Positions 43,461-61,031 of a DNA stretch of 64,000 bases are shown piece after piece (within the stretch, counting starts at the first letter, position 1; each line of letters opens with the position of its first letter). The notes beneath the pieces are model-generated. The model had not been told where the DNA came from. It worked only from the letters and a program-made list of their open reading frames with translations, and ran no database searches. The stretch spans positions 1 to 64,000 of the forward strand of contig CACMOQ010000003.1 of assembly GCA_902615445.1 (NCBI GenBank). The letters run 5' to 3'. The position numbers and the translations under genes were made by a program. The DNA is from an uncultured Pelagibacteraceae bacterium. Lineage in GTDB: Bacteria > Pseudomonadota > Alphaproteobacteria > Pelagibacterales > Pelagibacteraceae.

Positions 43461-43915
43461 TCTGCCCATGCGAAAAGAAAGGTGAGACTTCTGTTGTAGA
43501 TTCCCGACCAACTGAAGATGGTACAGCTATTCGTAGAAGAAGACTTTGTGCATGTGGTGCAAGATTTACAACATTTGAGAGAATTCAACACCGTGAGATA
43601 ATGGTTGTTAAAAAAAATGGAAGAAAATCATCGTTTGATAGAGATAAACTTTCAAAATCTATTTACATTGCATTAAAGAAAAGACCGTTAGATACCGAAA
43701 CAGTTGAAAAATTTATTAGTAAAATTTCAAGATCTTTAGAGGAATTAGGGCAAAATGAAATTTCAAGTAATACAATTGGTACTATGGTTATGGAGGGCTT
43801 GAAAGATCTTGATCCAGTTGCTTATGTGCGATTTGCATCAGTCTACAGAAATTTTAGAGAAGAAAAAGATTTTGTACAATTTGTGGACAAAATAGATGTC
43901 TTCAAAAAAAGATAA
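43457..43915 (+). CDS. nrdR: Transcriptional repressor NrdR
   Basis: CPC..., [31 protein letters not shown]-cone. Confidence 0.96.
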
Positions 43916-45002
43916 ATTTACACTTAAAGATAAAAACTTTATGAAACTTGCTATAAATTTAGCAAGTGCTCGAAAAGGTTTAACTGGTGAAAACCCTTCT
44001 GTAGGTTGCTTGATAGTAAAAAATGACCAGATTATTTCTATTGGGCAAACAGGCTTAAACGGTAGACCTCATGCAGAGCATAATGCAATAAAAAATTCTG
44101 TTGAAAACGTAAAAGGCTCAAAAATGTATGTAACTTTAGAGCCTTGTAATCATTATGGAAAAACACCCCCATGTACTAATAGTATTATTAAAAGTGGTAT
44201 TAGTGAAATTATTTATGGCATGGATGATATTGATAAAAAAGTTAAAGGAAAGAGTTTTAAAATTTTATCAAATAAGAAAATAAAAGTAAAAAAGGGACTT
44301 TTAAAAAATGAGGCAAAAAATTTATATGACTCATATATTGTTAATAGAAATAAAAAATTACCATTTGTAACTGCAAAGATTGCAATTTCTAAAAACAAGT
44401 TAATTTACAACAAAGGCACCAAAAGAATTACTCATGAAACCTCCGATAAATTAACCCATTATTTAAGGTATAAAAACGATTCTATTATGATTTCCTCCAA
44501 AACACTTAATATTGATAATCCCAAACTGAATTGTAGGCTTAAGGGATTTGAAAATTTTTCACCCAGAAGAATAATTTTAGACAAGAATTTAGAGATAAAA
44601 TTAAATAGTTATATTTTTAAGTCTGCCAAAAAAGACAACACCATAATTTTTTATAACGCTCTAAATACCAAAAAAATAAAAATTTTAAAAAAAAAAGGAA
44701 TAAAATTAATTAGATCTAAAATTGATAATAAGAAAATGTTTAACTTAAAAGCAGTTTTAAAAAAACTATATATTCTTGGTGTTAGGAATTTATTAGTAGA
44801 GGGCGGAGATAAAATAACAAAAAATCTTATTCAAAATAGATTAATTGATAAATTTTACCTGTTTAAAAGCCCTAAAAACTTGCTAATTAGTAAGGAGCAT
44901 ATGACATTTACATCTTTAGATACGTTGAATAGTAAATACAAAAACAAAACCAACATTAGCCCAAAACTAGCCAAAGATAATATTACCATCTATAAAAGAT
45001 AA
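43896..45002 (+). CDS. ribD: Bifunctional riboflavin deaminase/reductase RibD
   Basis: [33 protein letters not shown]; reductase domain C-terminal. Confidence 0.94.
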
Positions 45003-45003
45003 A

Positions 45004-45597
45004 ATGTTTAACGGAATTATATTTAATAGAGGATTAATTACAGGCATATCCAAAAGAGCCAAAGGCATAAACATTTTTGTAAAGTCAGACCTCAAATTAA
45101 AAAGTAAAGATATAGGAGTTTCAGTTGCTTGCGATGGCGTATGTTTAACACTCATTACAATTAAAAATAAGATTATGGAATTTTATCTTTCAAATGAAAC
45201 AGTCAAAAGATCAAAGTTTAAATTCTTAAAAAAAAACGATTTAATAAACTTAGAGCTTCCACTTAAATATGGACAAAAAATTTCAGGACATATATGCCAA
45301 GGTCATGTTGATACTACTGCTAAGGTTTTAAGTATAAAAAAAGTGGATAAATCCTATATCTTTGATTTTGAAATAAATCGTAGAGATAAAAAGGATATCA
45401 TTGAAAAAGCTTCAATTTGTGTCAATGGTATTTCTCTAACTATATCAAAGGTTACTAAAAAAGGTTTCCAAATATGGGTAATCCCTCATACTTTCAAACT
45501 AACAAATCTATCTAAGGTTAAAAAAGGAAGTTTAGTTAATATTGAAATAGATATTCTCTCTAAATACGTTAAAAATTTTTTCAATGCCAAAAAGTAA
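45004..45597 (+). CDS. ribE: Riboflavin synthase alpha chain
   Basis: MFNGII..G.I; SVACDGVCLTLI; ISGHICQGHVDTTAKV; CVNGISLTI. Confidence 0.93.
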   Translation: MFNGIIFNRGLITGISKRAKGINIFVKSDLKLKSKDIGVSVACDGVCLTLITIKNKIMEFYLSNETVKRSKFKFLKKNDLINLELPLKYGQKISGHICQGHVDTTAKVLSIKKVDKSYIFDFEINRRDKKDIIEKASICVNGISLTISKVTKKGFQIWVIPHTFKLTNLSKVKKGSLVNIEIDILSKYVKNFFNAKK

Positions 45598-46684
45598 TTA
45601 TTCATCAATAGAAACAATAATTAAGATTGCCAAAAAAGGTGGCATGTTCATTTTAGTTGATGATGAAAAAAGAGAAAATGAGGGTGATCTTGTTATATCT
45701 ACTTCCGATACAAATTCAAAAAATATAAATTTCATGGCTAAATATGGCAGAGGTTTAATTTGTTTAGCCTTGGACAGCTTACAAGCTAAAAGATTAAATT
45801 TATCTTTGATGTCACCTGTTAATCAATCAAGAAATCAAACTGCTTTTACAATTTCGATTGAAGCAAAAAAAGGAATTACAACAGGAATATCTGCTAAAGA
45901 TAGATCTAGAACAATAAAAATTGCTTCAAAAAAAAATGTCAGTAAAAAAGACATTGTTTCCCCAGGACATGTATTTCCTATTATTGCTAAAGATGGGGGA
46001 GTGTTAGTTAGGGCAGGTCATACTGAGGCTTCAGTAGATATTTCAAAAATAGCAAAAAAGAATAATTCAGCAGTCATTTGTGAAATAATGAATGAGGATG
46101 GGTCTATGGCTAAAGGCCAAGATCTTTTTGATTTTGCAGATAAACATAAACTGAAAATAGGAAAAATAGAGGATTTAATTTCTTATCGGTTAAAAAGAGA
46201 AAAGTTGGTAAGATTAAAAAAATCATCAGAAATTAAAGTAAAAAATCAAAAATATAAAATTAAGATTTATGAAAATCTATTAGATGGTTCCGAACACTTT
46301 GCCTTAGTAAAAGGAGCTATTAGAAAGGGTGTAGTTCCAAGAGTTCGAGTTATTTCCTCTAACATTGTTCATAATTATTTGATCAGTCAAAAATTACCTA
46401 ATTCATTCAATAAAACACTTAATTATTTTAAAAAATTTAATAACTGTGTTTTAGTTTTTATTAAAGACACAAATCTAAAATCAGTTACTCAAACATTAAA
46501 AGATTATAAAAATAAAGGCTCTTATAAAAAAAGTAATGATAAACTTTTAAGAAACTATGGTATTGGTGCCCAAATTATTAAAGATCTTAAGATAAGAAAA
46601 ATGATTTTAATAACAAAATCTCCAAAAAAAGTAATTGGATTAGAGGGTTATAATATTAAAATAACAAAACAAGAATTAATTTAA
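45584..46684 (+). CDS. ribB: 3,4-dihydroxy-2-butanone-4-phosphate synthase fused to a degenerate GTP cyclohydrolase II-like domain
   Basis: FILVDDEKRENEGDLV, GITTGISAKDRSRTI, GHVFPIIAKDGGVLVRAGHTEA; C-terminal NYGIGAQIIKDLKIRKMILITKSPKKVIGLEGY but no RibA Zn-Cys cluster. Confidence 0.92.
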   Translation: MPKSNYSSIETIIKIAKKGGMFILVDDEKRENEGDLVISTSDTNSKNINFMAKYGRGLICLALDSLQAKRLNLSLMSPVNQSRNQTAFTISIEAKKGITTGISAKDRSRTIKIASKKNVSKKDIVSPGHVFPIIAKDGGVLVRAGHTEASVDISKIAKKNNSAVICEIMNEDGSMAKGQDLFDFADKHKLKIGKIEDLISYRLKREKLVRLKKSSEIKVKNQKYKIKIYENLLDGSEHFALVKGAIRKGVVPRVRVISSNIVHNYLISQKLPNSFNKTLNYFKKFNNCVLVFIKDTNLKSVTQTLKDYKNKGSYKKSNDKLLRNYGIGAQIIKDLKIRKMILITKSPKKVIGLEGYNIKITKQELI

Positions 46685-47871
46685 TGAAAATTAGACCAGT
46701 TATTTTATGCGGAGGAGCTGGCACTAGACTTTGGCCAAAAGCTAAAAAACATCAAGCTAAACAGTTTATAGATTTTGGTAATTGGACTTTATTGGGAAAA
46801 ACTCTTGAGAGAGTTAAAGCATCTATATTTGATGCTCCAATTATAAGTACTAATTTAAAGTATTTAAGACAAGTAAAACAACATCTAAAGAAACACAAAA
46901 TAAGAAAATTCAAAATAGTTTTAGAGCCAGCTAAAAGAAACACAGCGCCAGCAATTTTAAGCACTGCTTTAATAAAGGATATTCCAAACGAACAACCTCT
47001 AATGTTCTTGGCTGCTGATCATTTGATAGAAAAGATAGGGTTACTCAATAAAGCTATCAAAAAAAATCAAAAGAAACTCACTCATAATAATATTTTTATC
47101 TTTGGAATTAAACCTACTATGCCTTCAAGTGAATTTGGTTATTTTTTAACAAAAAATAATAAAGTATCTAGATTTGTAGAAAAACCTAAAGAGGCTAAAG
47201 CTAAACAAATAATTAGTAAAAAAGGTTATTGGAATTCTGGAATGTTTTATTTGAGAAAAGACTCAATCATTAACAATTTTAAAAAACACCAGCCAAATAT
47301 TTACCAAAACTGTAACAAAGCTGTAACAAAAGCAAAATATAAAAGTAATGTGTATTATTTAAACAAACAAGCATTTACCAAAGCAACAGCTAAGTCTTTT
47401 GATTATGCAATATTAGAAAAAACTAAAGATATAAATGCGATTAAATTAGATATTCCTTGGTCAGATCTTGGATCGTGGAAGGAAATATTAAAAATGTACG
47501 ATAAAGATAAAAGTAAATATTATAAAAAAAGCAATGTTTATATTCGACCTTGGGGAAAGTATACAAATTTATTTGTAGGTAAAAATTTTTTGATAAAAGA
47601 ATTATACGTAAAACCAAAAGGGATTTTAAGTTTACAAAAACATTATCACAGATCTGAACATTGGTTAGTTATTAAAGGAAATCCAAAAATAACACTAAAT
47701 AAAAAAACTTTTATTAAAAAACCCAATGAACATATCTTTATAAATGTAGGATCAATACATAGAATTGAAAATCCTGGAAAAAAACCAGTTAGAATTATGG
47801 AATCTCAATTAGGATCAATTTTGAAAGAATCTGACATAGTAAGATACAAGGATAAATATGGTAGAGTCTAA
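46684..47871 (+). CDS. manC: Mannose-1-phosphate guanylyltransferase with C-terminal cupin (ManC/XanB type)
   Basis: PVILCGGAGTRLWPKAKKHQAKQF; RPWGKY...SLQKHYHRSEHWLVIKG; tail ESDIVRYKDKYGRV. Confidence 0.92.
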   Translation: MKIRPVILCGGAGTRLWPKAKKHQAKQFIDFGNWTLLGKTLERVKASIFDAPIISTNLKYLRQVKQHLKKHKIRKFKIVLEPAKRNTAPAILSTALIKDIPNEQPLMFLAADHLIEKIGLLNKAIKKNQKKLTHNNIFIFGIKPTMPSSEFGYFLTKNNKVSRFVEKPKEAKAKQIISKKGYWNSGMFYLRKDSIINNFKKHQPNIYQNCNKAVTKAKYKSNVYYLNKQAFTKATAKSFDYAILEKTKDINAIKLDIPWSDLGSWKEILKMYDKDKSKYYKKSNVYIRPWGKYTNLFVGKNFLIKELYVKPKGILSLQKHYHRSEHWLVIKGNPKITLNKKTFIKKPNEHIFINVGSIHRIENPGKKPVRIMESQLGSILKESDIVRYKDKYGRV

Positions 47872-48508
47872 TAATGATGAGGTAATTAGAGGAAATAAAG
47901 AAAATTTAGACAAAAAGGTTAGAATTAGGACAAAAGAAGAATTGGAAGTAAGAAAAATTGAATTCCTAAAGATCTGTGAGTTATTGGATAGGCTTAAAAT
48001 AAGATATTTTTTACAAACTGGAATTTTACTTGGAGCAATTAGACACAAAGGCTTTATTCCTTGGGATTGGGATGTTGAATTAAGTGTATATGCAAACGAA
48101 GTAGAACCTAAAATGGATCAATTACTTCATGAAATTGAACAAACTGGATTCAAGGTTGAGAAATATTATAAAGAATTATCGAGACTTAAAATAGATTTTA
48201 TTGGAAAATTTTCAAGAGAAACTACAGTTTATACCATTCAAGGTTGGAATCATGATAAAGAAAAAAGAGTTTTTTGGCGTAACAAATTTAGAGTTCCAGA
48301 TCATTTATTTAATAAAATGAGTAAAATAAAATTATTTGAAAAGGATCATTTTGTTCCAGACCCACCAGAAAGTTATTTAACTCATCAGTACGGTGATTGG
48401 AAAAAACCACTACAAACGAGTGATAAAAGCATATATTTAACAAAAAGATTTTCTGGAATATCACCAATTAAAATTTTTTTAAAAAAGATTATTAGTTTAA
48501 TAAAGTAA
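47858..48508 (+). CDS. LicD-family phosphotransferase-like protein
   Basis: YFLQTGILLGAIRHKGFIPWDWDVELSV; PDPPESYLTHQYGDWKKPL; start overlaps manC end by 14 nt. Confidence 0.82.
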   Translation: MVESNNDEVIRGNKENLDKKVRIRTKEELEVRKIEFLKICELLDRLKIRYFLQTGILLGAIRHKGFIPWDWDVELSVYANEVEPKMDQLLHEIEQTGFKVEKYYKELSRLKIDFIGKFSRETTVYTIQGWNHDKEKRVFWRNKFRVPDHLFNKMSKIKLFEKDHFVPDPPESYLTHQYGDWKKPLQTSDKSIYLTKRFSGISPIKIFLKKIISLIK

Positions 48509-48570
48509 ATTTAATTTAAACAAATCCAGTAAGTTAATTTGTTTTCATTATATATAATTTATTTTATAAT

Positions 48571-49752
48571 ATGATTCAGATGGCAAAACTTGTATTAAAT
48601 ATTCTTTTAATTATTTTTTTGTTTGAATTAATACTTTTTTTATTAGTCAACTATTTACGATTAAAAATTCCATGGGTAATTACAAATGAAGACGAATATC
48701 CAATTTTTGATTTAAATAAGATTGAAACTTTTTTAAAAAAAACACATGATATAAATTTAGGTTGGAATTGGAAACCCAATGCAAAACATGAGGAAAAAAT
48801 TTTTGATAAAACAAACAAAATTTATTTTGGCGAATTAGGCGAAAGAAAAGGTGTTAAGTCTTTAAAAAAAAAAGATAACTTTGCTTCTTTCGGTGACTCT
48901 TTTGTTTTTTGTAGATATGTAAAAAATAATCAAACATGGCAAGAACAATTAAAAAAGTCAGCAAATAGCAAAGGTCTAAATTTTGGTGTAGGTAATTATG
49001 GGTTAGACCAGATTTATTTAAAATATTTAAATACAAAGTTACCAAAATATATTAAAACGGTATATATAGGATTTGTTCCAGAAACTCTTTCTAGATGCCT
49101 ATGTTCTTGGAAACATTATCATGAATTTAATAATATTTATGGTTTTAAACCAAAGTTTTCTTTATCTAAAAATAGCTTAAAATTAATAAAAAATCCTATA
49201 AAAGATAAAAATAGTTTCAAAAACATTCATTCAATTATCAACAATTTAAAGAAAAAAGAATTTTTTTATAAAGAAAAATTTATGAAACATAAATTAGGAT
49301 TCCCATTTATTTATTATATTCTTTTAAACCCATTTCATAATACAAAATTGTTATTTTACTCTCTGTTAAAAATTTTTGGTATCAATAAAAATAAAATTTA
49401 TGAGTTTATAATAAAAGAAAATTGTTTTAAAAATGATGATTATTTTTTAGAAAAGAAAAATAAAGTTCTTATAAAAAAACTGATGTTAAAAATAAAAAAA
49501 ATATCTAAAAGCAGAAATCAAAAAATTTATTTTATCATTTTTCCACAAAAACATGATCTATCATTGAGTAAAAGAAATTACCAAAATTTTTTTTTGATGC
49601 TCAATAAAGAATTTAAAATAATTAATTTGACTAAAATATTTGAAAATAAAGATATAAATAAAATTTATTTACCAGATCAATATGGTGGCCATTTAAGCCC
49701 GTATGGCAACAAAGTCGTGGCTGATACATTGATAAAAAAAAAATTTACTTAA
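48571..49752 (+). CDS. Membrane-anchored SGNH/GDSL-hydrolase-like protein
   Basis: N-terminal TM segment; FASFGDSFVF (GDS block), NFGVGNYGLDQ, C-terminal LPDQYGGHLSPYGNKVVAD (D..H block). Confidence 0.72.
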   Translation: MIQMAKLVLNILLIIFLFELILFLLVNYLRLKIPWVITNEDEYPIFDLNKIETFLKKTHDINLGWNWKPNAKHEEKIFDKTNKIYFGELGERKGVKSLKKKDNFASFGDSFVFCRYVKNNQTWQEQLKKSANSKGLNFGVGNYGLDQIYLKYLNTKLPKYIKTVYIGFVPETLSRCLCSWKHYHEFNNIYGFKPKFSLSKNSLKLIKNPIKDKNSFKNIHSIINNLKKKEFFYKEKFMKHKLGFPFIYYILLNPFHNTKLLFYSLLKIFGINKNKIYEFIIKENCFKNDDYFLEKKNKVLIKKLMLKIKKISKSRNQKIYFIIFPQKHDLSLSKRNYQNFFLMLNKEFKIINLTKIFENKDINKIYLPDQYGGHLSPYGNKVVADTLIKKKFT

Positions 49753-49844
49753 AAACTTAGTGTTATTATATGATTTTTATGAGATCTATTATAAATAAAA
49801 AACATAAAAAAATCACAAAGTTATTTTATCGATCATAATTAAAA

Positions 49845-52157
49845 ATGATGTCTTTTACTAAAGCTAATTCTTTAAAAATAATTACTAGATATAAAAAAAC
49901 ATTAGTTCCAGAATTTTATTATTTTGAAAAAAATTATTTTTTAAAAAATAAATCAAGAGTAATTAAAAAGATAAAAAAAAGATTTGATACCGATATAATT
50001 ATAAGATCCTCAGCTGTGAATGAAGATAGTCAAAAAAAAAGTAACGCTGGATTTTACGATTCTCACGTAATTTATAAAAAAAACTTTCATCAAATTGAAG
50101 TTAAGATAATTAAACTTATCAAAAAATTTAAAAAAAATAATGATCAGATCCTAGTTCAAAAATTTATCAGAGACCCACAAATCGCGGGTGTTATTTTTAC
50201 AAAAGACAAAACATCAAATTCTTACTATTTTGACATCAACTATGATAGTTCAGGTAAATCAAATTTAATTACATCTGGAAAATATAACCCAACTATAAAA
50301 TCATTAACTATTTATAAAAATTCTAAGAATATTCCTATTAAATTTAAAAAATTGATAAGTGTTACAAGTAATTTGGAAAAAATATTTAAAAATGATCGTT
50401 TAGATATAGAGTTTTGTATTAAAAATAATAGAATTTATATTTTACAATGTAGACCTTTACTTGGATCAAAAAAAAAAGTTAGTAAAGAAAAATTAAATCA
50501 AGTCATTATTAATTTAGAGGCAAAATTTAAGAAGATTAATCAAAAAAACGAAACTTTATTTGGGGATAAAACTGTTTTATCTAATATGTCTGATTGGAAT
50601 CCAGCAGAAATGATTGGTAAAAAACCATCACAATTAGCTTTATCTTTATATTCTGAATTAATTACCAACTCTGTTTGGGCTGAACAAAGATATAATTATG
50701 GATATAAAGATGTTCATCCTAATAAGTTAATGCTTAATTTTGCAGGAACACCTTATATCGATTTGAGAGTCGATCTAAATTCATTTTTACCATACGACTT
50801 GAATCCAAAAATTTCAAATAAGCTTATTAATTTTTTTATAGATAAACTAAAAAAAAATCCTGAATTACATGATAAAATTGAATTTGAACTAATAAACACA
50901 TGTTTTGATTTTTCATTACTTAAAAATAATTCATTACCACTCACTAAACCTGAAAAAAAAATTTATTTTTCATCTCTAAAAAAACTGACAAATAATATCC
51001 TTAAACCTAGTAATAATATTCTTAATAACGACTTACAAAAAATAAACACATTGAAGAAAAAGATTTTTTTAATCAATAAGTCTAAACTAAGCCATATTCA
51101 AAAAATTTATTATCTAATAAGTGATTGCAAAAGATATGGCACTCTACCATTTGCTGGCATTGCGAGATGCGCATTTATAAGTAAGACAATTTTAGATAGT
51201 TTACAAAAAATTAAGATGATCAAAGCACAAGACATAGAAAATTTTTACCTTACAATAAATACTATATCCAAAAAAATTAATAATGATTATTATAAATCAA
51301 GACGTAATAATAAATTTAAAAAATTTATCGATAATTATGGTCATTTAAGGCCTTCAACATATTCAATATTAACTAAAAATTACAAAGAAAATTATAAGAA
51401 TTATTTTTCAAAAGATCTTAAAAAAGACGTTTTCAGTAATAAAACTAAATTTAGATTTAAAATAGATCAAATTAAAAAGATAGATAAATTATTTAAAAAA
51501 AGTGGCTTAGACATATCATTTAAACAATTTTTAAAATTTGCAAAAGAATCGATAGAGAACCGAGAATATTCAAAATTGATTTTTACCAAATCAATTGATG
51601 AGATATTTAAAAATTTAGAAAAATTAGCCAGTGAAATAAATATTGATATAAAAAAATTTCAACACTTAGATATTGATATAATTTTAAAATCATTCAATAA
51701 TCTTGAACAAGAAAGATTAAGAAAAACAATTTCAAGAAATATAGCTATTAACGAGGACTCATACAAGTTTTCACAATCAATTATGTCGCCTGATGTTATT
51801 ACTGAAAGTAAAAATTTTTATTATTTTCACAGTTTAAATTGTAAGGAAAATTACATCACAAAAAAAACTAAAATTGGTGAGGTTGTTTTACTAAATAAAC
51901 TGAATAATTTTAGATCTGTTACGAATAAAATCGTTTTAATTGAAAATGCAGACCCTGGTTTTGATTTTTTATTTTCTTATAAGATTGAAGGTTTAATAAC
52001 AAAATACGGCGGTTCTAATTCTCATATGGCAATAAGATGTATGGAACTAGGTTTACCCGCGATAATAGGAGTTGGTGATAAAATTTATGATCAATTATCT
52101 ATGTCTAAAAAAATTTTTATTGATTGTAATAATAAAAAATACTCCATCATTCATTAA
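49845..52157 (+). CDS. PEP-synthase-like phosphotransferase (PPDK N-terminal ATP-grasp + phosphohistidine swivel domain, no PEP barrel); candidate L-glutamine kinase (Cj1418-like)
   Basis: DIIIRSSAVNEDSQKKSNAGFYDSH; terminal GLITKYGGSNSHMAIRCMELGLPAIIGVGD; protein ends directly after swivel domain; operon context. Confidence 0.78.
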   Translation: MMSFTKANSLKIITRYKKTLVPEFYYFEKNYFLKNKSRVIKKIKKRFDTDIIIRSSAVNEDSQKKSNAGFYDSHVIYKKNFHQIEVKIIKLIKKFKKNNDQILVQKFIRDPQIAGVIFTKDKTSNSYYFDINYDSSGKSNLITSGKYNPTIKSLTIYKNSKNIPIKFKKLISVTSNLEKIFKNDRLDIEFCIKNNRIYILQCRPLLGSKKKVSKEKLNQVIINLEAKFKKINQKNETLFGDKTVLSNMSDWNPAEMIGKKPSQLALSLYSELITNSVWAEQRYNYGYKDVHPNKLMLNFAGTPYIDLRVDLNSFLPYDLNPKISNKLINFFIDKLKKNPELHDKIEFELINTCFDFSLLKNNSLPLTKPEKKIYFSSLKKLTNNILKPSNNILNNDLQKINTLKKKIFLINKSKLSHIQKIYYLISDCKRYGTLPFAGIARCAFISKTILDSLQKIKMIKAQDIENFYLTINTISKKINNDYYKSRRNNKFKKFIDNYGHLRPSTYSILTKNYKENYKNYFSKDLKKDVFSNKTKFRFKIDQIKKIDKLFKKSGLDISFKQFLKFAKESIENREYSKLIFTKSIDEIFKNLEKLASEINIDIKKFQHLDIDIILKSFNNLEQERLRKTISRNIAINEDSYKFSQSIMSPDVITESKNFYYFHSLNCKENYITKKTKIGEVVLLNKLNNFRSVTNKIVLIENADPGFDFLFSYKIEGLITKYGGSNSHMAIRCMELGLPAIIGVGDKIYDQLSMSKKIFIDCNNKKYSIIH

Positions 52158-52769
52158 ATGAAAACTTTAGTTGTATCTCCAAAAATTAGTATTGATAAAC
52201 ATAAAAAAATTAACTTTCATATCGATCAAGATTTATCAAATTTTTTAAATCGTCTTAAAGTAAAAATTATACCTGTAGTATTAAAGAATAATAAATTAGA
52301 TTTAAATTCAGTTAAATACGCAGATGGGCTAATTCTTGCTGGAGGTGGAGATATTTCAAAGAAGCATAAAAATAAAGTTAATCAAATTAGAGATAATTAT
52401 GAAAAAAAACTTTTTAAATATTATTACAATAGAAATAAACCGATCTTAGCTATATGCAGGGGATTTCAATTAATTGCAGATATCCATGGTATTAAGTTAG
52501 AAAAAATTAATAATCATGTTAGAAAATTTCATTCATTAAAGATTGATAGAAGTAAATTTATTAAAGACAAGATACTTAAAGTTAATTCTTATCATGATTA
52601 TTGTATAAAGGATTTACCAAAAAATTTTATCAAAGTTTCAAATACAAAAGATGGTTCAATAGAAATTGCTGAACATAAATCAAAAAAGATACTTTGTTTA
52701 ATGTTTCATCCTGAACGAAAAATGAAATCGAAAAAAAATATTCTTAAATCAATTAAAAATTTCTTTTAA
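52158..52769 (+). CDS. Class I glutamine amidotransferase (peptidase C26-like); candidate gamma-glutamyl-CDP-amidate hydrolase (Cj1417-like)
   Basis: ADGLILAGGGDIS, PILAICRGFQLIAD nucleophile Cys, NSYHDYCI, LMFHPERK. Confidence 0.8.
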   Translation: MKTLVVSPKISIDKHKKINFHIDQDLSNFLNRLKVKIIPVVLKNNKLDLNSVKYADGLILAGGGDISKKHKNKVNQIRDNYEKKLFKYYYNRNKPILAICRGFQLIADIHGIKLEKINNHVRKFHSLKIDRSKFIKDKILKVNSYHDYCIKDLPKNFIKVSNTKDGSIEIAEHKSKKILCLMFHPERKMKSKKNILKSIKNFF

Positions 52770-53482
52770 TGCAACTTATATTGTTATCTGCTGGAAGAGG
52801 GTCTCGATTATCAAAAGAGTTAAGATCTAAACCTAAATCATTAGCTAGAGTGAATGGTAAACCTATAATAGAGCATAATCTCAAATTTTTTAATAAGTTT
52901 AAGAAAAAATTTATAGTTACGGGTTACAAACAAAAATCTTTAGTAAGTTTTGCCAAAAAATATGGTTTTAAAATGGTTCACAATAGCAAGTTCCAGAAAA
53001 CAAATATGGTTTATAGCATGTTTCTACCCTCAAAATATATTACTAAGGATGTTGTAATTTGTTATGGAGATATAATTTTTGATCATAAAATTTATAATTT
53101 ACTAAATAATAAAAATAATATTATTCCATTAAATATTAATTGGTTAAAGATTTGGAAAAAAAGAATGTCCAAAAAAAAAATTAAAAAAGATGCTGAAAAT
53201 GTTTTGGTTAAAAATAATATTTTGTTGTCTATAGGAGGCAAGATAAGTAAAAATTTTCCTAAATATCAGTACATGGGTATTTTTAAATTAAAAAGAAATA
53301 TTTATCTTAATTTAAAAAAATTCTTTGTAAAAATTAAAAACCCCCAAATAGATATGACTAATTTTTTAAATACCTCAATAAAACATTACAAATTGAAATT
53401 AAAAGTTAAAAAATATAAGAGTTATTGGTATGAAATTGATAATAAGAAGGACCTGATAGTTTCTTCAAAAGATTTAAAATAA
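52769..53482 (+). CDS. Sugar-type nucleotidyltransferase; candidate CTP:phosphoglutamine cytidylyltransferase (Cj1416-like)
   Basis: MQLILLSAGRGSRLSKELRSKPKSLARVNGKPIIEHNL; NMVYSMF; VICYGDIIFD; YQYMGIFKL; YWYEIDNKKDL. Confidence 0.8.
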   Translation: MQLILLSAGRGSRLSKELRSKPKSLARVNGKPIIEHNLKFFNKFKKKFIVTGYKQKSLVSFAKKYGFKMVHNSKFQKTNMVYSMFLPSKYITKDVVICYGDIIFDHKIYNLLNNKNNIIPLNINWLKIWKKRMSKKKIKKDAENVLVKNNILLSIGGKISKNFPKYQYMGIFKLKRNIYLNLKKFFVKIKNPQIDMTNFLNTSIKHYKLKLKVKKYKSYWYEIDNKKDLIVSSKDLK

Positions 53483-53543
53483 GGCTGTTTATGGCAAGGC
53501 ATTATTTTTATACATTATTTAAGATTTTTGAGCTCTTAAACAA

Positions 53544-53573
53544 TTTTAACAAATCTGTAACATTTGAATGAGA
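53544..53573 (+). promoter_or_regulatory. Candidate Pho box A (TTTAACA-N4-TGTAACA)
   Basis: TTTTAACAAATCTGTAACATTTGAATG; 24 of 27 positions identical to site B; 7-4-7 spacing. Confidence 0.6.
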
Positions 53574-53582
53574 TAATTTTAT

Positions 53583-53660
53583 ATGGAAATTCTAACATTT
53601 ATTTTGTTAATCATAATAGCTATTTTGTTATTTTTTCTTTTAAAAAAGAAACTGATATAG
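53583..53660 (+). other. Possible 25-aa single-TM small ORF MEILTFILLIIIAILLFFLLKKKLI (unverified)
   Basis: ATG-to-TAG ORF directly downstream of candidate Pho box A; hydrophobic stretch followed by KKK. Confidence 0.3.
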
Positions 53661-53695
53661 TTAGATACCAAGATGTTTATGGAAGAGTAAAATAA
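53648..53695 (+). pseudogene. Remnant of a manC 3' end (ETDIVRYQDVYGRVK*)
   Basis: Translated fragment matches the tail of the ManC at 47827-47871 (ESDIVRYKDKYGRV*); no intact gene upstream. Confidence 0.72.
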
Positions 53696-54580
53696 TTATT
53701 TTACAAGAAAATTCACCTTTTTATTTGATAGATTTAAATGAATTTTTTTATATGAACCAAAATTATCTCCATCAATTTGAACTGGTATCAAATCATTTCC
53801 ATCAATAGTAATGTTTTGTGAATAAGTAGTAATAACATTTTTGTTTTTACTTAAATCACCATTAAGAATTATTAAGAATATAGAATATAATAAACTGATC
53901 CTAGTCAAATCCTTAAAAATATAGGTGACTAATTTATCTTCAAAAATATTTGTTTTATTTATTTTATGATGTCCAGCGTAATATTTGGTATTTGAGGATA
54001 ATATCCAGTCTGCTTGATAAAATTGCCCATCAAAAGTTACATTTAATTTTTTATTATTCATAAATAAGAAATATTGAAAACCTTTGATGCCAAAAATAAT
54101 TTTACCAAGAATTTTTTTAATTTTTGAATTAATTGAATGAACAATTTTTGCATCCCATCCTATACCAGCCATTAAAAAGAAATAATTATCGTTAATTTTT
54201 ACAAGATTAGAGGATTTATAATTATTAGAAACCAACACATTTACTATATCATCAACTTTTTTATTCATTGATAATTCAGCTTGAAGCAAATTTGCAGTGC
54301 CAGCAGGAATATAACCTATGGCAAAATCGTCTTTAAAATCAAAATTATTTTTAATTAATTCATTAATTGCAAAAGAAACTGAACCATCACCACCAGCTAC
54401 TATTAGTCGATCATAATTTTTTTGATTAAAATTTTTGAAAATTTTCTTAGCTTGATTTATTGTTTTTGTTTCAAAGTAGTCTACAAAATTATTTTCTTTT
54501 AACTTAGATAAAACCCTATTTATGAATTTTGATTTTCTTCCAGAAGAAGAGTTTAGATTGTAAATCAAACAATATAACAT
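53696..54580 (-). CDS. Diacylglycerol kinase-family lipid kinase (DagK/YegS-like)
   Basis: YDRLIVAGGDGSVSFAINEL; IGYIPAGTANLLQAEL; C-terminal IPVQIDGDNFG. Confidence 0.87.
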   Translation of the reverse strand: MLYCLIYNLNSSSGRKSKFINRVLSKLKENNFVDYFETKTINQAKKIFKNFNQKNYDRLIVAGGDGSVSFAINELIKNNFDFKDDFAIGYIPAGTANLLQAELSMNKKVDDIVNVLVSNNYKSSNLVKINDNYFFLMAGIGWDAKIVHSINSKIKKILGKIIFGIKGFQYFLFMNNKKLNVTFDGQFYQADWILSSNTKYYAGHHKINKTNIFEDKLVTYIFKDLTRISLLYSIFLIILNGDLSKNKNVITTYSQNITIDGNDLIPVQIDGDNFGSYKKIHLNLSNKKVNFLVK

Positions 54581-54678: not shown

Positions 54679-55491
54679 ATGCCTAATTTACTAAAATATA
54701 GAAGTATATTTATTTCTGACGTTCATTTAGGTACTAAAGGTTGTCAGGCGAAAAAACTTTTAGAGTTTTTTAAAAACTCGAGGTCTGAAAATCTTTATCT
54801 TGTAGGAGACATTATAGATATCTGGGAAATGCAAAAAAGTTTTTTTTGGCCTCAAGAACATAATGATGTAATCCAAAAAATTTTAAGAAAAGCTAGACAT
54901 GGTACCAAAGTTTTCTACATAATGGGTAATCATGACGAAATGTTAAGAAAATTTATTCCAATGCATTTTGGTGACATCCATATGGTTAATAGAGTTATTC
55001 ATGAAACAAATGCAGGAAAAAAATATCTCGTTGTTCATGGTGATGCTTGGGATGGTGTTATGAAACATGCTAAATGGTTATCTAAACTTGGATCAATAGC
55101 CTATAATTTACTATTAAAATTAAATGTAATAATTAATTTTTTTAGAAGATTGAGAGGAAAAGAATATTGGTCTCTTGCAAAATTTTTAAAGTATAAAGTC
55201 AAAAATGCAGTTAAATATATTGGTGAATATGAAAAAACACTTTCAGATTATGCAAAAAGAAAAAAATTTGATGGAATTATTTGTGGCCACATCCATCATG
55301 CTGAGGATAGAGACTTTAATGGGGTCAATTATTTAAATTGTGGAGACTGGGTTGAATCTTGTACCGCATTAGCCGAAAATTATGATGGTAGTTTTGAAAT
55401 ATTATATTGGGACAAAATAAGAGAACAATATTTAGACGATAAAGAAATAATTGAACCAATTAAAACTGAAGAATTAAAAAAAGCTTCATAA
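54679..55491 (+). CDS. plcP: Metallophosphoesterase (UDP-2,3-diacylglucosamine hydrolase-like); candidate PlcP phospholipase C
   Basis: FISDVHLGTKGCQAKKLLEFF, LVGDIIDIWEM, IMGNHDEMLR, LVVHGDAWDG, ICGHIHHAE; followed by GT and next to Pho regulon. Confidence 0.8.
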   Translation: MPNLLKYRSIFISDVHLGTKGCQAKKLLEFFKNSRSENLYLVGDIIDIWEMQKSFFWPQEHNDVIQKILRKARHGTKVFYIMGNHDEMLRKFIPMHFGDIHMVNRVIHETNAGKKYLVVHGDAWDGVMKHAKWLSKLGSIAYNLLLKLNVIINFFRRLRGKEYWSLAKFLKYKVKNAVKYIGEYEKTLSDYAKRKKFDGIICGHIHHAEDRDFNGVNYLNCGDWVESCTALAENYDGSFEILYWDKIREQYLDDKEIIEPIKTEELKKAS

Positions 55492-55494
55492 TTA

Positions 55495-56502
55495 ATGAAA
55501 ATTTTAATTGCTACAGACGCATATTTTCCACAAGTAAATGGTGTCGTAAGAACCTTACATGAAACAGGCAATGTATTAAAAGAACAAGGTCATAGAATAG
55601 AATATATTACACCTGACTTATTTTTTACTTTTCCGATGCCGAAATATAATGAAATTAAGTTGTCTATAAATGTATGGCCAAGAGTTGGTAATTTAATAAA
55701 GAAAATCAATCCAGATGCAATTCATATCGCTACCGAAGGCCCGATAGGCACTATGGCAAGAAGATATTGTTTAAAAAATAATCTAAAGTTTACTACGAGT
55801 TTCCATACAAGATTTGATAAATATCTAAAACTTTACTTTCCTATTATACCAGCAAAATGGGCTGAAAAATTCTTAGCAAATTTTCATAATAAGGCTGAGA
55901 GAATTTTAGTAACTACAGAGTCTATGAGAAAAGAATTAATCGATATAGGTATAGATGACAATAAAATGATTACTTGGACTAGAGGAGGAAATCATGGAGC
56001 TTTTAAGAACCCTAAAAAAATTGATTTACCTCATAAAAGACCTATTTGGATTTATGTTGGAAGAGTTGCAGTTGAAAAAAACATAAGAGCTTTCTTAGAA
56101 TGTGATTTAGAAGGTACAAAGATAATTATAGGAAAAGGACCTGATTTAAAAAAATTGAAAAAAGAATTCCCTAAAGATATTTTTTTAGGAGAAAAAACAA
56201 ATGGTGAATTAGCATCACATTTTGCATCCTCTGATGTTTTTGTTTTCCCAAGTAAAACAGATACATTTGGAATTGTAGTTACAGAAGCTTTAAATTGTGG
56301 AACACCTGTTGCTGCGTATCCTGTTCCAGGTCCTAAAGATATATTTGAAGGATCCAAAATAAATTGTTTAGATGATGATCTTAAAGTATCAGCACATAAA
56401 GCTTTGAAAGTTAATAGAAATGATTGTCTTGAATTTGCAAAAAAATTCACTTGGGAAGAAACAGCAAAAATATTTTTTAACAATATTTCACCAAATCATT
56501 AG
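55495..56502 (+). CDS. GT4-family glycosyltransferase (MgtA/SqdX-like); candidate Agt glycolipid synthase
   Basis: MKILIATDAYFPQVNGVVRTLHETG, SFHTRFDKYLKLYFP, VFVFPSKTDTFGIVVTEALNCGTPVAAYPVPGPKD. Confidence 0.85.
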   Translation: MKILIATDAYFPQVNGVVRTLHETGNVLKEQGHRIEYITPDLFFTFPMPKYNEIKLSINVWPRVGNLIKKINPDAIHIATEGPIGTMARRYCLKNNLKFTTSFHTRFDKYLKLYFPIIPAKWAEKFLANFHNKAERILVTTESMRKELIDIGIDDNKMITWTRGGNHGAFKNPKKIDLPHKRPIWIYVGRVAVEKNIRAFLECDLEGTKIIIGKGPDLKKLKKEFPKDIFLGEKTNGELASHFASSDVFVFPSKTDTFGIVVTEALNCGTPVAAYPVPGPKDIFEGSKINCLDDDLKVSAHKALKVNRNDCLEFAKKFTWEETAKIFFNNISPNH

Positions 56503-56567
56503 TTAATTTTTCCTTAATTTATTTGCATTAAAAAGTGTAATGATGCAAAATTAAGCCATCTAAATTT

Positions 56568-57710
56568 ATGGAATATTTCGTCATTCTACTTATAGTTGTG
56601 ATAGTTTATCTTCTCTATTTACTTAATCAAAAAAAAAATAAATCAATAAATACCGCTACAATAGTTAATAAAAGAGAAGAAAAAACAAAAAGAGTAATTA
56701 TTGATGAGCTTGAAGATCAATTTTTTGCATTAAATAAATTTAACATAATTAAATATGCCAATCCAAGTGCATTAAAAAGATTTGGAAGTAATTTAATTGA
56801 TAAAAACATATCTTCTATAATTCGAAAACCAGAATTAATAGAAAATATTGAAAAAGCTATCGTAGAAAATAAAACAAAAAATATCGATGTTGAAATAGAC
56901 CTCCCATCATATCAATTCTATAAAATTTATATTATTCCTGGCCCAACTCATTTGTTTACTGAACCAGACTCTGTTGTGTTATTTTTAAAAGATTTTACTG
57001 AAATTACAAAAGCACAAAAATTTAAAACTGATTTTGTAGCAAATGTAAGCCATGAATTAAGAACACCTTTAATGGCAATCAAAGGATCACTAGAAACAAT
57101 TGAGGGCCCAGCGTCTGATGATGAAAAGGCTAAAAAAAAATTTATGAAAATTTTATCTGAACAATCAACAAGGATGGAAAGTTTAATTAATGATCTATTA
57201 ATTCTTACACGGATTGAACTTGATGAACATATAAGACCTACTTCAATAGTAAATATTAATGAAATCTTTGAAACTATTATTAGTAATTTTGAAATTGTTT
57301 TAAAAAAGAAAAATATAACTGTTAAAAATCAATTAACAAATACATCAATTGTTATAGGTGATGAAAAAAGATTAAATACAGTTTTTTCTAATCTTTTGGA
57401 TAATTCAATAAAATATTCTCCAGAAAATAAAAATATATATATTTCTAAAAATGAAAATAGTAACAAACTATTAGAAAAGAATATAATGATTAGTATTAAA
57501 GATGAAGGTTATGGCATTCCATATGAACACATTTCGCGTGTTACAGAAAGATTTTACAGGGTTGACACAGAACAAAGTAATAAAGTTGGTGGAACTGGTT
57601 TAGGATTAGCTATTGTTAAACACATAATTACTCAACACAGAGGTGATTTTGAGATTCTTTCAGAGGTTGGTAAAGGTACTGAAATTAAAATATATTTGCC
57701 TTCGAAATAA
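56568..57710 (+). CDS. phoR: Phosphate regulon sensor histidine kinase PhoR
   Basis: N-terminal TM, FVANVSHELRTPLMAIKGSLETI, GTGLGLAIVKHI; upstream of pst operon. Confidence 0.92.
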   Translation: MEYFVILLIVVIVYLLYLLNQKKNKSINTATIVNKREEKTKRVIIDELEDQFFALNKFNIIKYANPSALKRFGSNLIDKNISSIIRKPELIENIEKAIVENKTKNIDVEIDLPSYQFYKIYIIPGPTHLFTEPDSVVLFLKDFTEITKAQKFKTDFVANVSHELRTPLMAIKGSLETIEGPASDDEKAKKKFMKILSEQSTRMESLINDLLILTRIELDEHIRPTSIVNINEIFETIISNFEIVLKKKNITVKNQLTNTSIVIGDEKRLNTVFSNLLDNSIKYSPENKNIYISKNENSNKLLEKNIMISIKDEGYGIPYEHISRVTERFYRVDTEQSNKVGGTGLGLAIVKHIITQHRGDFEILSEVGKGTEIKIYLPSK

Positions 57711-57805
57711 AAATTTAAAAAAAACTTCATTTTACAACCCTTATTTGAGAAAACTTTAACATTTCTTTGATTGATTCGTGTATAGATTTTATTTAAGTTT
57801 TTATA

Positions 57806-58414
57806 ATGTTTAAAATACTCAAAAATATTTTAATATTTTTTTATTTAATCTTGTTTTTCACAACTAGTGTATATTCAAAAGACCTTTCTACTCTTTTACG
57901 TACTCAGCAATTAACAGTTTTTGACATAGGTATTTTTAGATTAGAAGAGGACTTAAAGAGTTCTTATCCTGCTGTAAAGAAACATAAAGATGTGCCTTAT
58001 GAAGATATATATATGGATGTTGTCAGTTCCTATTGGAGAAATACAGTAGATTTAATTGTTTCAATCCCAGTAAATGAAAATTTAAAAAAAGAGAATTATA
58101 TGTCAGACTCATTTAGATGTAGAAATATATTTAATTCAGTAAGAGATCATTTGTTGAGAAACGAAAATTTAAGTAATTATAGGTTTACTATGGCAACTAG
58201 TTATTTAACATCTGTTTTTTCTACTCCAAGCACATGGCCAAGATGGCGATACGATCAAAGCGTCTTAGAAGAATTAGTTAATTTAGTGAAACTTGAAGTT
58301 ATTTTGAGACCTACAACTGAGCTTGCTTTTAAAGATAAAGTTAACCCTGTTTCTTGTAAAGGTGGTTTAGAAACAGAAAATGATGAGATTATAATCTCAA
58401 TGAAATACAACTAA
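57806..58414 (+). CDS. Secreted protein of unknown function between phoR and pstS
   Basis: Signal-peptide-like N-terminus (ILIFFYLILFFTTSVYSKD), intact ORF, two Cys; no family recognised. Confidence 0.7.
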   Translation: MFKILKNILIFFYLILFFTTSVYSKDLSTLLRTQQLTVFDIGIFRLEEDLKSSYPAVKKHKDVPYEDIYMDVVSSYWRNTVDLIVSIPVNENLKKENYMSDSFRCRNIFNSVRDHLLRNENLSNYRFTMATSYLTSVFSTPSTWPRWRYDQSVLEELVNLVKLEVILRPTTELAFKDKVNPVSCKGGLETENDEIIISMKYN

Positions 58415-58424
58415 AAAGTTATCT

Positions 58425-58456
58425 TTTTAACAAAAGTGTAACAATTCTGTAATATT
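58425..58456 (+). promoter_or_regulatory. Candidate Pho box C upstream of pstS (three 11-bp-phased repeats)
   Basis: TTTAACA-AAAG-TGTAACA-ATTC-TGTAATA. Confidence 0.75.
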
Positions 58457-58523
58457 AAAGATTCAATTAATTTATACGAGTCACTCATCTTTATATTAAT
58501 TAATAACGAAAGGATTAAAGATA

Positions 58524-59555
58524 ATGAAAAAACTAACTATAGTGATCGCTTCTTTAGTTGCTTTATCAATAGCAACTGTTGCTCAAGCAAGAGATCAAAT
58601 TAAGATAGTTGGTTCTTCTACGGTATTCCCTTACGCAACAGTTGTTGCTGAAAGATTTGGTGGTTCAGGATTTAAAACTCCTGTGATCGAGTCTACTGGT
58701 ACTGGTGGTGGAGCTAAACTATTCTGTGCTGGTGTAGGTGAACAACATCCAGATATTACAAATGCATCAAGAGCTATGAAAGATAAAGAAAAAGCTTTAT
58801 GTAAGAAAAATGGTGTTAATGATATCGTTGAAATCGTAATTGGTAACGATGGTATTACATTAGCTTACAGCAAAGATGCAAAACCAGTAAACTTTACTAA
58901 AGAACAATTATATTTAGCACTTGCTGCTCATACAGTTGTTGATGGTAAATTAGTTCCAAATATTTATAAAACTTGGGACCAAATTGACCCTAGCTTACCA
59001 AAACAAAAAATTTCAGTGATGATCCCACCAGGAACATCAGGAACTAGAGATGCTTGGAATTCTTTAGTAATGAAAAAAGGTATGACTAAAGAAGCTAAAG
59101 CTCTTTATAAAGCTGGTTTTGAAGCTGGAAATAAAAAATACAAAAAACCTCAAAAACTTTACAGAGAAGATGGTGCTGCTATTGAAGTTGGAGAAAACGA
59201 TAGTTTAATCATCCAAAAGTTAACTCAAGATAAAGAAATGTTTGGTTTCTTTGGTTTCAGTTATTTCTTAGCTGCAAAAGATAAATTGCAAGCAGCAAGT
59301 ATTGATGGTGGACAACCGTCATTAAAGTCTATTCAAGACTACAGTTATGCTGTTGCTAGACCTTTATTCTTCTACGTGAAAAAAGCACACGTTGGAGTAA
59401 TTCCAGGCTTACATGAGTTTGTGAAAGAATTCACAACTAAGAAAGCTATTGGAAAAGGTGGTTACTTAGCAGACATTGGTTTAGTGCCATTAGACTCTAA
59501 GTTGTATAAAACAACTAGAACTAATGCTACGAAGCTAGTTGCTATGGGTAATTAA
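58524..59555 (+). CDS. pstS: Phosphate ABC transporter substrate-binding protein
   Basis: IKIVGSSTVFPYATVVAERFG, STGTGGGAKLFCAG, PPGTSGTRDAWNSLV. Confidence 0.97.
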   Translation: MKKLTIVIASLVALSIATVAQARDQIKIVGSSTVFPYATVVAERFGGSGFKTPVIESTGTGGGAKLFCAGVGEQHPDITNASRAMKDKEKALCKKNGVNDIVEIVIGNDGITLAYSKDAKPVNFTKEQLYLALAAHTVVDGKLVPNIYKTWDQIDPSLPKQKISVMIPPGTSGTRDAWNSLVMKKGMTKEAKALYKAGFEAGNKKYKKPQKLYREDGAAIEVGENDSLIIQKLTQDKEMFGFFGFSYFLAAKDKLQAASIDGGQPSLKSIQDYSYAVARPLFFYVKKAHVGVIPGLHEFVKEFTTKKAIGKGGYLADIGLVPLDSKLYKTTRTNATKLVAMGN

Positions 59556-59580
59556 TTATTCCTCAGTTAACAAATGATCA

Positions 59581-59610
59581 AAAAGGGGGTCTTTTTAGAC
59601 CCCTTTTTTT
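59581..59610 (+). terminator. Intrinsic terminator/attenuator-like hairpin between pstS and pstC
   Basis: AAAAGGGGGTC-ttttta-GACCCC followed by T-tract. Confidence 0.88.
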
Positions 59611-59645
59611 TAAAAAAGAGTAAAGTCCTCACTTAAGGAGATTCT

Positions 59646-61031
59646 GTGAACTTAATATTATTTACATTTATTGTTCTTCTAGGTTTCACAAGCTATTATT
59701 TTGGACGCAAAAAAGCATATACAATTCAATCTACAAAAAAAAGATTAACCGCATTACCACAATTTTATGGTTATTATCTTGCAATCTGGTGTGCAATACC
59801 AGCCTTTATAATTTTTTCATTATGGGCAATTTTTGAGCCCACAATTGTAAAACTATTAATCTTAAGTGATTATTCAAATCAAGGTTATCTTGATGATGAA
59901 TTAAATTTATTATACGAAAAATCAAAAGCATTGTCTCGAGGGCAATTCACTGGAGAAATTACACCTTTTATTGAAGCTTCAGCTGAAAAATATTTAAGTC
60001 TTCGATCAATAGCTCAAAGTTCAAAAGTTGTTATAGTATTATCTGCAATTATTGCTTCTGTTGCTTATGCGTATAAAAGAATTTCATCTAATTCTAGAAC
60101 AAGAGAACCAGTTGAAAAATTTTTGAACGCAGTTTTATTTACAGCTTCTTTGGCTGCAATATTAACTACTGTTGGAATAGTTTTCTCACTTATATTTCAA
60201 ACTATAGATTTTTTTAAAGTAATTCCATTATTTGATTTTGTCTTTGGAACTCACTGGTATCCAGCAAAAGCTTTTGTTAGAGATTCTTCTGAGGCTTTAG
60301 ATCCGACAATGTATTCAGATACTTTTGGAGCAGTCCCTATTTTTGCAGGTACTTTTTTTATTGCATTTATTGCTATGTGCGTTGCTATCCCAATTGGATT
60401 AATGAGTGGAATTTATTTAGCTGAATATGCATCAACTAAAGTTAGACAATATGCAAAACCATTAATTGAAATTTTAGCTGGTATACCAACAGTTGTCTAT
60501 GGTTTTTTTGCTGCCCTAACTGTTGGACCATTTTTGAAAGAATTAGGAACTTCAATGGGTCTTGAAGTTTCAGCTGAAAGTGCTTTAGCAGCAGGAGGGG
60601 TAATGGGTATTATGATTATACCATTTATTTCAAGTTTAAGTGACGATGTCATTACAAGTGTGCCTCAAAGTTTAAGAGATGGAAGTTACGCTATGGGAGC
60701 AACTAAATCAGAAACAATTAAGAGAGTTATTTTTCCCGCGGCATTGCCGGGGATTGTTGGATCTATTTTACTTGGTGTTTCAAGAGCTATTGGAGAAACA
60801 ATGATAGTTGTTATGGCCTCTGGTTTAGCTGCTAATTTAACTTTAAATCCTTTAGAGTCTACTTCAACGATTACAGCTCAAATTGTAGTTATTCTAATTG
60901 GTGACCAAGCTTTTGGCGACCCAAAAACGCAAGCTGCTTTTGCTTTAGGTATGTCATTATTTTTAGTAACACTTTGTTTAAATATTGTGGCCTTGAGAGT
61001 AGTTAAAAAATATAGAGAAAAATATGAATAA
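59646..61031 (+). CDS. pstC: Phosphate ABC transporter permease PstC (long alphaproteobacterial type)
   Basis: Permease EAA-like loop LRDGSYAMGATKSETIKRVIFPAALPGIVGS; operon; GTG start. Confidence 0.94.
   Translation: MNLILFTFIVLLGFTSYYFGRKKAYTIQSTKKRLTALPQFYGYYLAIWCAIPAFIIFSLWAIFEPTIVKLLILSDYSNQGYLDDELNLLYEKSKALSRGQFTGEITPFIEASAEKYLSLRSIAQSSKVVIVLSAIIASVAYAYKRISSNSRTREPVEKFLNAVLFTASLAAILTTVGIVFSLIFQTIDFFKVIPLFDFVFGTHWYPAKAFVRDSSEALDPTMYSDTFGAVPIFAGTFFIAFIAMCVAIPIGLMSGIYLAEYASTKVRQYAKPLIEILAGIPTVVYGFFAALTVGPFLKELGTSMGLEVSAESALAAGGVMGIMIIPFISSLSDDVITSVPQSLRDGSYAMGATKSETIKRVIFPAALPGIVGSILLGVSRAIGETMIVVMASGLAANLTLNPLESTSTITAQIVVILIGDQAFGDPKTQAAFALGMSLFLVTLCLNIVALRVVKKYREKYE

What the first reader, a model, noticed from the sequence alone, without database searches (positions are those of the whole stretch)
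49845..53482. Candidate cytidine-diphosphoramidate pathway (Cj1418/Cj1417/Cj1416-like trio) in a SAR11-like genome
Seen in sequence: three tightly abutted genes encode (1) a PEP-synthase-like protein with the PPDK_N ATP-grasp motif (RSSAVNED) and swivelling-His motif (GGSNSHMAIRCMELGLPAIIG) that stops with no PEP-binding barrel, (2) a class I glutamine amidotransferase with C/H/E triad motifs, and (3) a short nucleotidyltransferase. Established knowledge: in Campylobacter jejuni the capsule O-methyl phosphoramidate pathway uses L-glutamine kinase (Cj1418), gamma-glutamyl-CDP-amidate hydrolase (Cj1417) and CTP:phosphoglutamine cytidylyltransferase (Cj1416) to make cytidine diphosphoramidate. 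Inference: this trio performs the same chemistry, giving a streamlined ocean bacterium a P-N-bonded surface modification. This could matter for phage resistance and for P-N compounds in seawater. No Cj1415-like kinase or methyltransferase is seen beside it, so any final product may differ.
Basis: partly seen in the sequence, partly recalled or inferred. Interest (0 to 1): 0.87.

Follow-up and report, generated by a model that had tools for sequence, protein, structure and literature searches.

The report
Phosphoramidate-making gene trio in SAR11
An abundant ocean bacterium carries, in a small inserted gene cassette, the same three-enzyme set that the gut pathogen Campylobacter uses to make a rare phosphorus-nitrogen building block for its coat, but without that pathogen's next two enzymes, which suggests a simpler route to a rare surface decoration.

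Summary
Three abutting genes (49845-53482) encode a PEP-synthase-like ATP-grasp/swivelling-His protein without PEP barrel (K), a class I amidotransferase-fold hydrolase (H) and a short nucleotidyltransferase (N). They are homologues, in the same order, of the trio in a Campylobacter-type capsule locus whose gene order matches Cj1421 to Cj1413 (K 39%, H 31%, N 31% identity). Most likely the trio makes cytidine diphosphoramidate from glutamine, ATP and CTP. New here: (1) the trio is cargo of a 5.6-kb, 22% GC insertion (LicD-SGNH-K-H-N) at the 3' end of a mannose-1-phosphate guanylyltransferase gene; 11 same-genus relatives lack it there. (2) SAR11 loci lack the methyltransferases (0 of 36). (3) The window belongs to a SAR11 branch that mostly also lacks the Cj1415-like kinase and often carries a TagF-like transferase (PF04464); the window has a LicD-type one. 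Both families use CDP-activated donors, so direct transfer of unmethylated phosphoramidate from CDP-amidate is proposed; that step is inference. H scores below the curated cut-off for Cj1417 equivalogs.

The parts
49845..52157 (+). K: L-glutamine kinase homologue (Cj1418 type), 770 aa: ATP-grasp, central domain of about 470 aa, swivelling His domain, no PEP barrel
   Evidence: NF004508 783 bits; 38.8% over 737 aa to K of a C. jejuni-type locus; tree; AlphaFold model pLDDT 87.9; nearest solved fold rifampin phosphotransferase
52158..52769 (+). H: gamma-glutamyl-CDP-amidate hydrolase homologue (Cj1417 type), 203 aa, Cys100/His184/Glu186
   Evidence: (NF045546 best family, 116.7 bits, below cut-off 250)
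52769..53482 (+). N: CTP:phosphoglutamine cytidylyltransferase homologue (Cj1416 type), 237 aa, with family motif W-x(2-4)-W-x2-R...D-x-E
   Evidence: motif in 105 of 110 trio N proteins, 4 of 1826 other ORFs
47858..48508 (+). LicD-family protein, 216 aa; candidate phosphoramidate transferase
   Evidence: PF04991 E 1.2e-10; inside the insertion; LicD in only 7 of 99 same-genus genomes. Role inferred
48571..49752 (+). Membrane-anchored SGNH-fold protein, 393 aa; homologues near K in four other SAR11 loci
   Evidence: AlphaFold model with N-terminal helix matches SGNH/GDSL esterases and PatB O-acetyltransferase
46684..47871 (+). Mannose-1-phosphate guanylyltransferase/isomerase-like gene; its 3' end is the insertion site
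53645..53705 (+). Remnant of the 3' end of the guanylyltransferase gene, repeated at the right edge of the insertion
   Evidence: close match to the empty-site gene end of L153; direct repeat of window about 47823-47876
47858..53644 (+). Inserted cassette LicD-SGNH-K-H-N, 22.4% GC against 28-29% in the flanks
   Evidence: 11 of 11 same-genus relatives lack it at this site; GC and junctions

Best explanation
The trio makes cytidine diphosphoramidate (CDP-NH2). [quoted passage not shown] N couples the product to CTP; H hydrolyses off glutamate, leaving CDP-NH2. This part rests on homology to the characterised Campylobacter enzymes. Next (inferred), because no 3'-kinase of the Cj1415 kind and no methyltransferase is present, a CDP-dependent transferase moves the NH2-PO2 group directly onto a glycan or lipid head group and releases CMP. 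In this genome the candidate is the LicD-family protein encoded in the same inserted cassette; in sister loci it is a TagF-like (PF04464) protein encoded after N. The product would be an unmethylated phosphoramidate on the cell surface.
For: Full-length homology and gene order shared with a Campylobacter-type capsule locus in which MT-MT-K-H-N-APS-kinase is followed by 681 and 392 aa genes as in C. jejuni Cj1420-Cj1413 (the Cj gene order is from my own knowledge). Seven H proteins over the NF045546 cut-off each follow a K gene. Trio complete in 33 of 33 SAR11 loci tallied; H in 57 and N in 63 of 68 others. Catalytic residues conserved. The Cj1415-like kinase lies near the trio in 17 of 19 loci of the other SAR11 branches but 2 of 14 of the window's branch, and is never found with the TagF-like gene in those loci (0 of 8 against 19 of 25). 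L143, outside the main SAR11 clade, also has TagF-like without kinase. Methyltransferase in 0 of 36 SAR11 loci, 42 of 68 others. PF04464 supported by Pfam in one member. Unmethylated phosphoramidates occur in Xanthomonas and Shewanella LPS (stated in PMC3907429).
Against: No activity shown. Window H is far below the NF045546 cut-off (116.7 against 250). The LicD-trio link rests on one SAR11 locus. In the four other loci with the SGNH gene a Cj1415-like kinase is present, so the window may have lost it or hold it in the unassembled 7.5% or so of the genome. The closest relative L037 has a gene with a sulfotransferase-like motif, not LicD, in the same slot, though Pfam finds no family in it. Association counts are not corrected for shared ancestry.
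Confidence: 0.72

Rival explanations
1. The trio makes CDP-NH2, but the donor is still 3'-phosphorylated as in C. jejuni: a kinase encoded elsewhere (missing part of the assembly, or a general P-loop kinase) makes 3'-phospho-CDP-NH2, used by a sulfotransferase-like enzyme.
For: A Cj1415-like kinase is near the trio in 19 of 33 SAR11 loci; the SGNH gene is otherwise found with it; L037, sister to the window, has a gene with a sulfotransferase-like motif before K; G000 is 92.5% complete.
Against: Whole-genome search finds only a conserved 173 aa P-loop protein, 44 bits, present in many SAR11 genomes with or without K. The TagF-like gene and the kinase exclude each other in sister loci.
Confidence: 0.28
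2. Phosphocholine decoration: N is a LicC-type CTP:phosphocholine cytidylyltransferase and LicD transfers phosphocholine; K and H do something else.
For: Nearest solved structure to N is LicC 1jyk; a LicD-family gene lies in the same cassette.
Against: The match to LicC covers only the N-terminal half plus a weak C-terminal piece; the W..W..R...D.E block, shared with Campylobacter-type N proteins, falls outside it. N goes with K and H in loci of many phyla, mostly without LicD. No choline kinase or transporter gene was recognised in the cassette.
Confidence: 0.06
3. K is a PEP synthase or antibiotic phosphotransferase (rifampin type), H a generic C26 peptidase, and the linkage is incidental.
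For: Best fold match of K is rifampin phosphotransferase; weak PPDK/PEP-synthase matches.
Against: No PEP barrel; K scores 783 bits with its own family NF004508 and far less with PEP-synthase or rifampin families; trio conserved across phyla.
Confidence: 0.03
4. The trio makes CDP-NH2 for a small secreted P-N compound rather than a surface decoration.
For: Other natural P-N compounds exist (review PMC6429109); the acceptor here is unknown.
Against: The cassette follows a GDP-mannose-type gene and carries LicD and membrane-anchored SGNH genes; the Campylobacter-type trio sits in a capsule locus.
Confidence: 0.1

Closest known systems
Campylobacter jejuni O-methyl phosphoramidate capsule pathway, steps Cj1418-Cj1417-Cj1416
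   Same: Three homologous enzymes in the same order K-H-N with catalytic motifs kept
   Different: No Cj1415-like kinase, no Cj1419/Cj1420-like methyltransferases, no Cj1421/Cj1422-like transferase recognised; H below the curated cut-off for the Campylobacter hydrolase
Unmethylated phosphoramidate of Xanthomonas campestris and Shewanella LPS (as cited in PMC3907429)
   Same: Expected product lacks the O-methyl group
   Different: Genes behind those were not compared here
LicD (PF04991) and TagF/CDP-glycerol glycerophosphotransferases (PF04464)
   Same: Families that transfer a phospho-group from a CDP-activated donor; found at transferase-like positions beside SAR11 trios
   Different: Donor would be CDP-NH2 instead of CDP-choline or CDP-glycerol: inferred
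Rifampin phosphotransferase / PEP synthase
   Same: ATP-grasp and swivelling His domains, overall architecture
   Different: Sequence of the central domain differs; no PEP barrel

Membership tests
L-glutamine kinase (Cj1418 type) | PPDK_N ATP-grasp plus swivelling His domain, no PEP barrel | tested here: met
L-glutamine kinase (Cj1418 type) | Full-length homology to K of Campylobacter MeOPN-type loci, shared central-domain blocks (DWNPxE, HDKIEF, YGHLR) | tested here: met
L-glutamine kinase (Cj1418 type) | Phosphorylates the amide N of L-glutamine | not testable with these tools
   needs an enzyme assay
gamma-glutamyl-CDP-amidate hydrolase (NF045546) | Score above the curated cut-off of 250 bits | tested here: not met
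   116.7 bits, but best-scoring of all NCBIfam families
gamma-glutamyl-CDP-amidate hydrolase (NF045546) | Cys/His/Glu triad and position directly after K | tested here: met
CTP:phosphoglutamine cytidylyltransferase (Cj1416 type) | Homology to N of Campylobacter-type loci and shared W..W..R...D.E block | tested here: met
CTP:phosphoglutamine cytidylyltransferase (Cj1416 type) | Uses CTP and phosphoglutamine | not testable with these tools
   needs an enzyme assay
O-methyl phosphoramidate (MeOPN) pathway | Cj1415-like CDP-amidate kinase | tested here: not met
   none at the locus; only a weak conserved P-loop protein in the 92.5% complete genome
O-methyl phosphoramidate (MeOPN) pathway | Cj1419/Cj1420-like methyltransferases beside the trio | tested here: not met
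LicC/LicD phosphocholine pathway | LicC-type cytidylyltransferase over its full length | tested here: not met
   similarity to 1jyk essentially limited to the N-terminal half
LicD family PF04991 | Pfam gathering score | tested here: met
   42.3 bits over 22.6, matched stretch only 37 residues

The most novel reading that the evidence does not exclude
SAR11 bacteria hold a shortened phosphoramidate pathway in which CDP-amidate itself, without 3'-phosphorylation or methylation, is the donor, used by LicD-type or TagF-type phosphotransferases acting as phosphoramidate transferases; the cassette moves as an insertion at the end of a GDP-mannose gene beside the phosphate-starvation locus.
Probability: 0.4. 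Interest if true: 0.75.

Novelty: new variant of a known kind. Interest (0 to 1): 0.62.

Why it matters
Phosphoramidate surface groups are known from few bacteria, and the 2019 review read here still gives the methylated form as seen only in Campylobacter. [quoted passage not shown] That would matter for phage recognition and for the pool of P-N compounds in seawater. The kinase-less branch gives a testable new donor chemistry for the LicD and TagF families.

Tried and rejected
Direct fetch of the key enzymology papers (PMC5629633, PMC5938751, PMC6643271) failed, not held. C. jejuni itself was not among the best 80 loci; replaced by an unnamed Campylobacterales genome with the same gene order. 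IMG/VR gave no relative; the phage collection gave one unannotated 9.5-kb record. No Pfam hit for the SGNH protein even at E 10, settled by fold. PF04464 is absent from G000, so the TagF-like transferase is not the one used here. Paper search for Pelagibacter with phosphoramidate found none.

Full report
What is there. Between 49845 and 53482 three genes abut on the + strand: K (770 aa), H (203 aa) and N (237 aa). K contains PPDK_N and the PEP-utiliser mobile domain and nothing else in Pfam; H is a GATase/C26 protein; N an NTP_transf_3 protein. In NCBIfam, K belongs to NF004508 (PRK05849, 'hypothetical protein', 783 bits, cut-off 501), and the best family of H is NF045546, gamma-glutamyl-CDP-amidate hydrolase (E 1.3e-33, but 116.7 bits against a cut-off of 250).

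Is it the Campylobacter trio? A search of 249 Campylobacterota genomes found 8 with H above the NF045546 cut-off; in the seven of these whose surroundings were read, H directly follows K. Against L130 the window K is 38.8% identical over 737 aa, H 31% and N 31%. The central domain of K shares blocks with the Campylobacter-type proteins, and the His of the swivelling domain is invariant; GG..SH and DWNP.E occur in 111 of 112 K proteins. All 102 H proteins checked keep Cys and the H.E pair. N proteins share a W..W..R...D.E block in 105 of 110 cases against 4 of 1826 other ORFs; it lies outside the region where the N profile matches LicC.

How widespread. A scan of 84,980 species genomes gave at least 554 relatives of K; the best 80 cover Pseudomonadota, Bacillota, Bacteroidota, Spirochaetota, Acidobacteriota and others. 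K, H and N stand together in nearly all. Within Pelagibacterales, 32 of 397 sampled genomes carry K. Fourteen plasmid records also do. In a tree of 101 K proteins, 31 SAR11 rows form one supported set, with three SAR11 rows elsewhere.

What is different here. Outside SAR11, the loci often hold an APS-kinase-family gene (like Cj1415; 40 of 68), a methyltransferase (42 of 68) and sometimes a CysQ-like 3'-nucleotidase (11 of 68), as expected if the donor is 3'-phosphorylated. No SAR11 locus has the methyltransferase (0 of 36). SAR11 splits in two: one part has the kinase near the trio (17 of 19), the branch holding the window mostly not (2 of 14). In the kinase-less branch, 8 of 14 loci carry a TagF-like protein near N, in most directly after it; one member passes the PF04464 cut-off and another falls just short. 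TagF-like and kinase never share a locus in this set. These counts are not corrected for ancestry; L143, outside the main SAR11 clade, repeats the pattern.

The window's cassette. In 11 of 11 same-genus genomes the guanylyltransferase gene (46684) is followed by the diacylglycerol-kinase-like gene (53696), at most with one other gene between. In the window LicD-SGNH-K-H-N are inserted there. GC is 22.4% against 28-29% in the flanks. The right edge keeps about 60 bases of a second copy of the guanylyltransferase 3' end, closer to the empty-site copy of L153 than the window's own intact gene end is. LicD genes are rare in the genus (7 of 99), so finding one inside this insertion is suggestive. 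L037, the nearest relative, has a different gene with a sulfotransferase-like motif before K in a slot after the same guanylyltransferase.

A recombinant trio. K and H of the window group with the kinase-less branch, but N groups with a kinase-bearing branch, and DNA identity to L037 jumps from about 74% to 94% near 52445. The trio is being reshuffled among SAR11 lineages.

Function. Glutamine kinase N-phosphorylates the glutamine amide (PMC6429109); the later steps (CTP coupling, hydrolysis to CDP-NH2, 3'-phosphorylation by Cj1415) are established for C. jejuni in papers cited there that I could not open, and are given here from own knowledge. By homology K, N and H make CDP-NH2 here. Transfer by LicD is inference. 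PMC3907429 states that unmethylated phosphoramidate occurs in Xanthomonas and Shewanella LPS, that C. fetus and C. lari strains with the trio gave no methylated signal, and that the methylated group is a phage receptor in C. jejuni.

Folds. The K model (pLDDT 87.9) is closest to rifampin phosphotransferase. The SGNH gene product (pLDDT 74.6) has an N-terminal helix and an SGNH/GDSL fold like PatB; its homologues lie in four other SAR11 trio loci, next to the kinase or K.

Verdict. The shortened, kinase-less variant is the new point (about 0.4).

Noticed in passing
window 54679-63756: Next to the cassette lie a metallophosphoesterase and a 335 aa GT4 gene resembling the PlcP-glycosyltransferase pair of SAR11 lipid renovation (PMC8231724), then a histidine kinase and a PstS-like gene with permease-like genes: a phosphate-starvation locus. 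Any link to the cassette is untested.
   Followed up: partly
window 52445-53482 against L037: DNA identity rises from about 74% to about 94% inside H, and N groups with another SAR11 branch than K and H: recombination within the trio.
   Followed up: yes
L032 (G040:C1:97144-99347): K of this SAR11 genome is interrupted by in-frame stops and split in two ORFs, with H, N and kinase downstream: a decaying copy or sequencing errors.
   Followed up: no
L147 (G667:C3:4365-6668): A SAR11 K that groups with Sulfuricurvum and has the kinase gene upstream: likely a separate transfer from Campylobacterota.
   Followed up: partly
L031, L036: A second C26/GATase-like protein (about 205 aa) follows the TagF-like gene, besides H.
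   Followed up: no
L152 (G000:C7:44640-45162): A conserved 173 aa P-loop protein with a partial APS-kinase match, found in many SAR11 genomes, beside a nucleotidyltransferase-like ORF; function unknown.
   Followed up: partly
MT837632.1 682-2994: A 9.5-kb record labelled Bacteriophage sp. from human faeces encodes a full-length K relative (31.6%); could be bacterial DNA.
   Followed up: no
window 43896-46684: The rib genes precede the guanylyltransferase here, whereas relatives have 875 and 572 aa genes that look like valS and ilvD; the ilvD-like gene was not found in this incomplete genome.
   Followed up: partly
L048, L049, L053, L054, L066, L071 and others: A CysQ-like 3'(2'),5'-bisphosphate nucleotidase sits in about ten trio loci, which would fit removal of the 3'-phosphate left after transfer.
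   Followed up: partly
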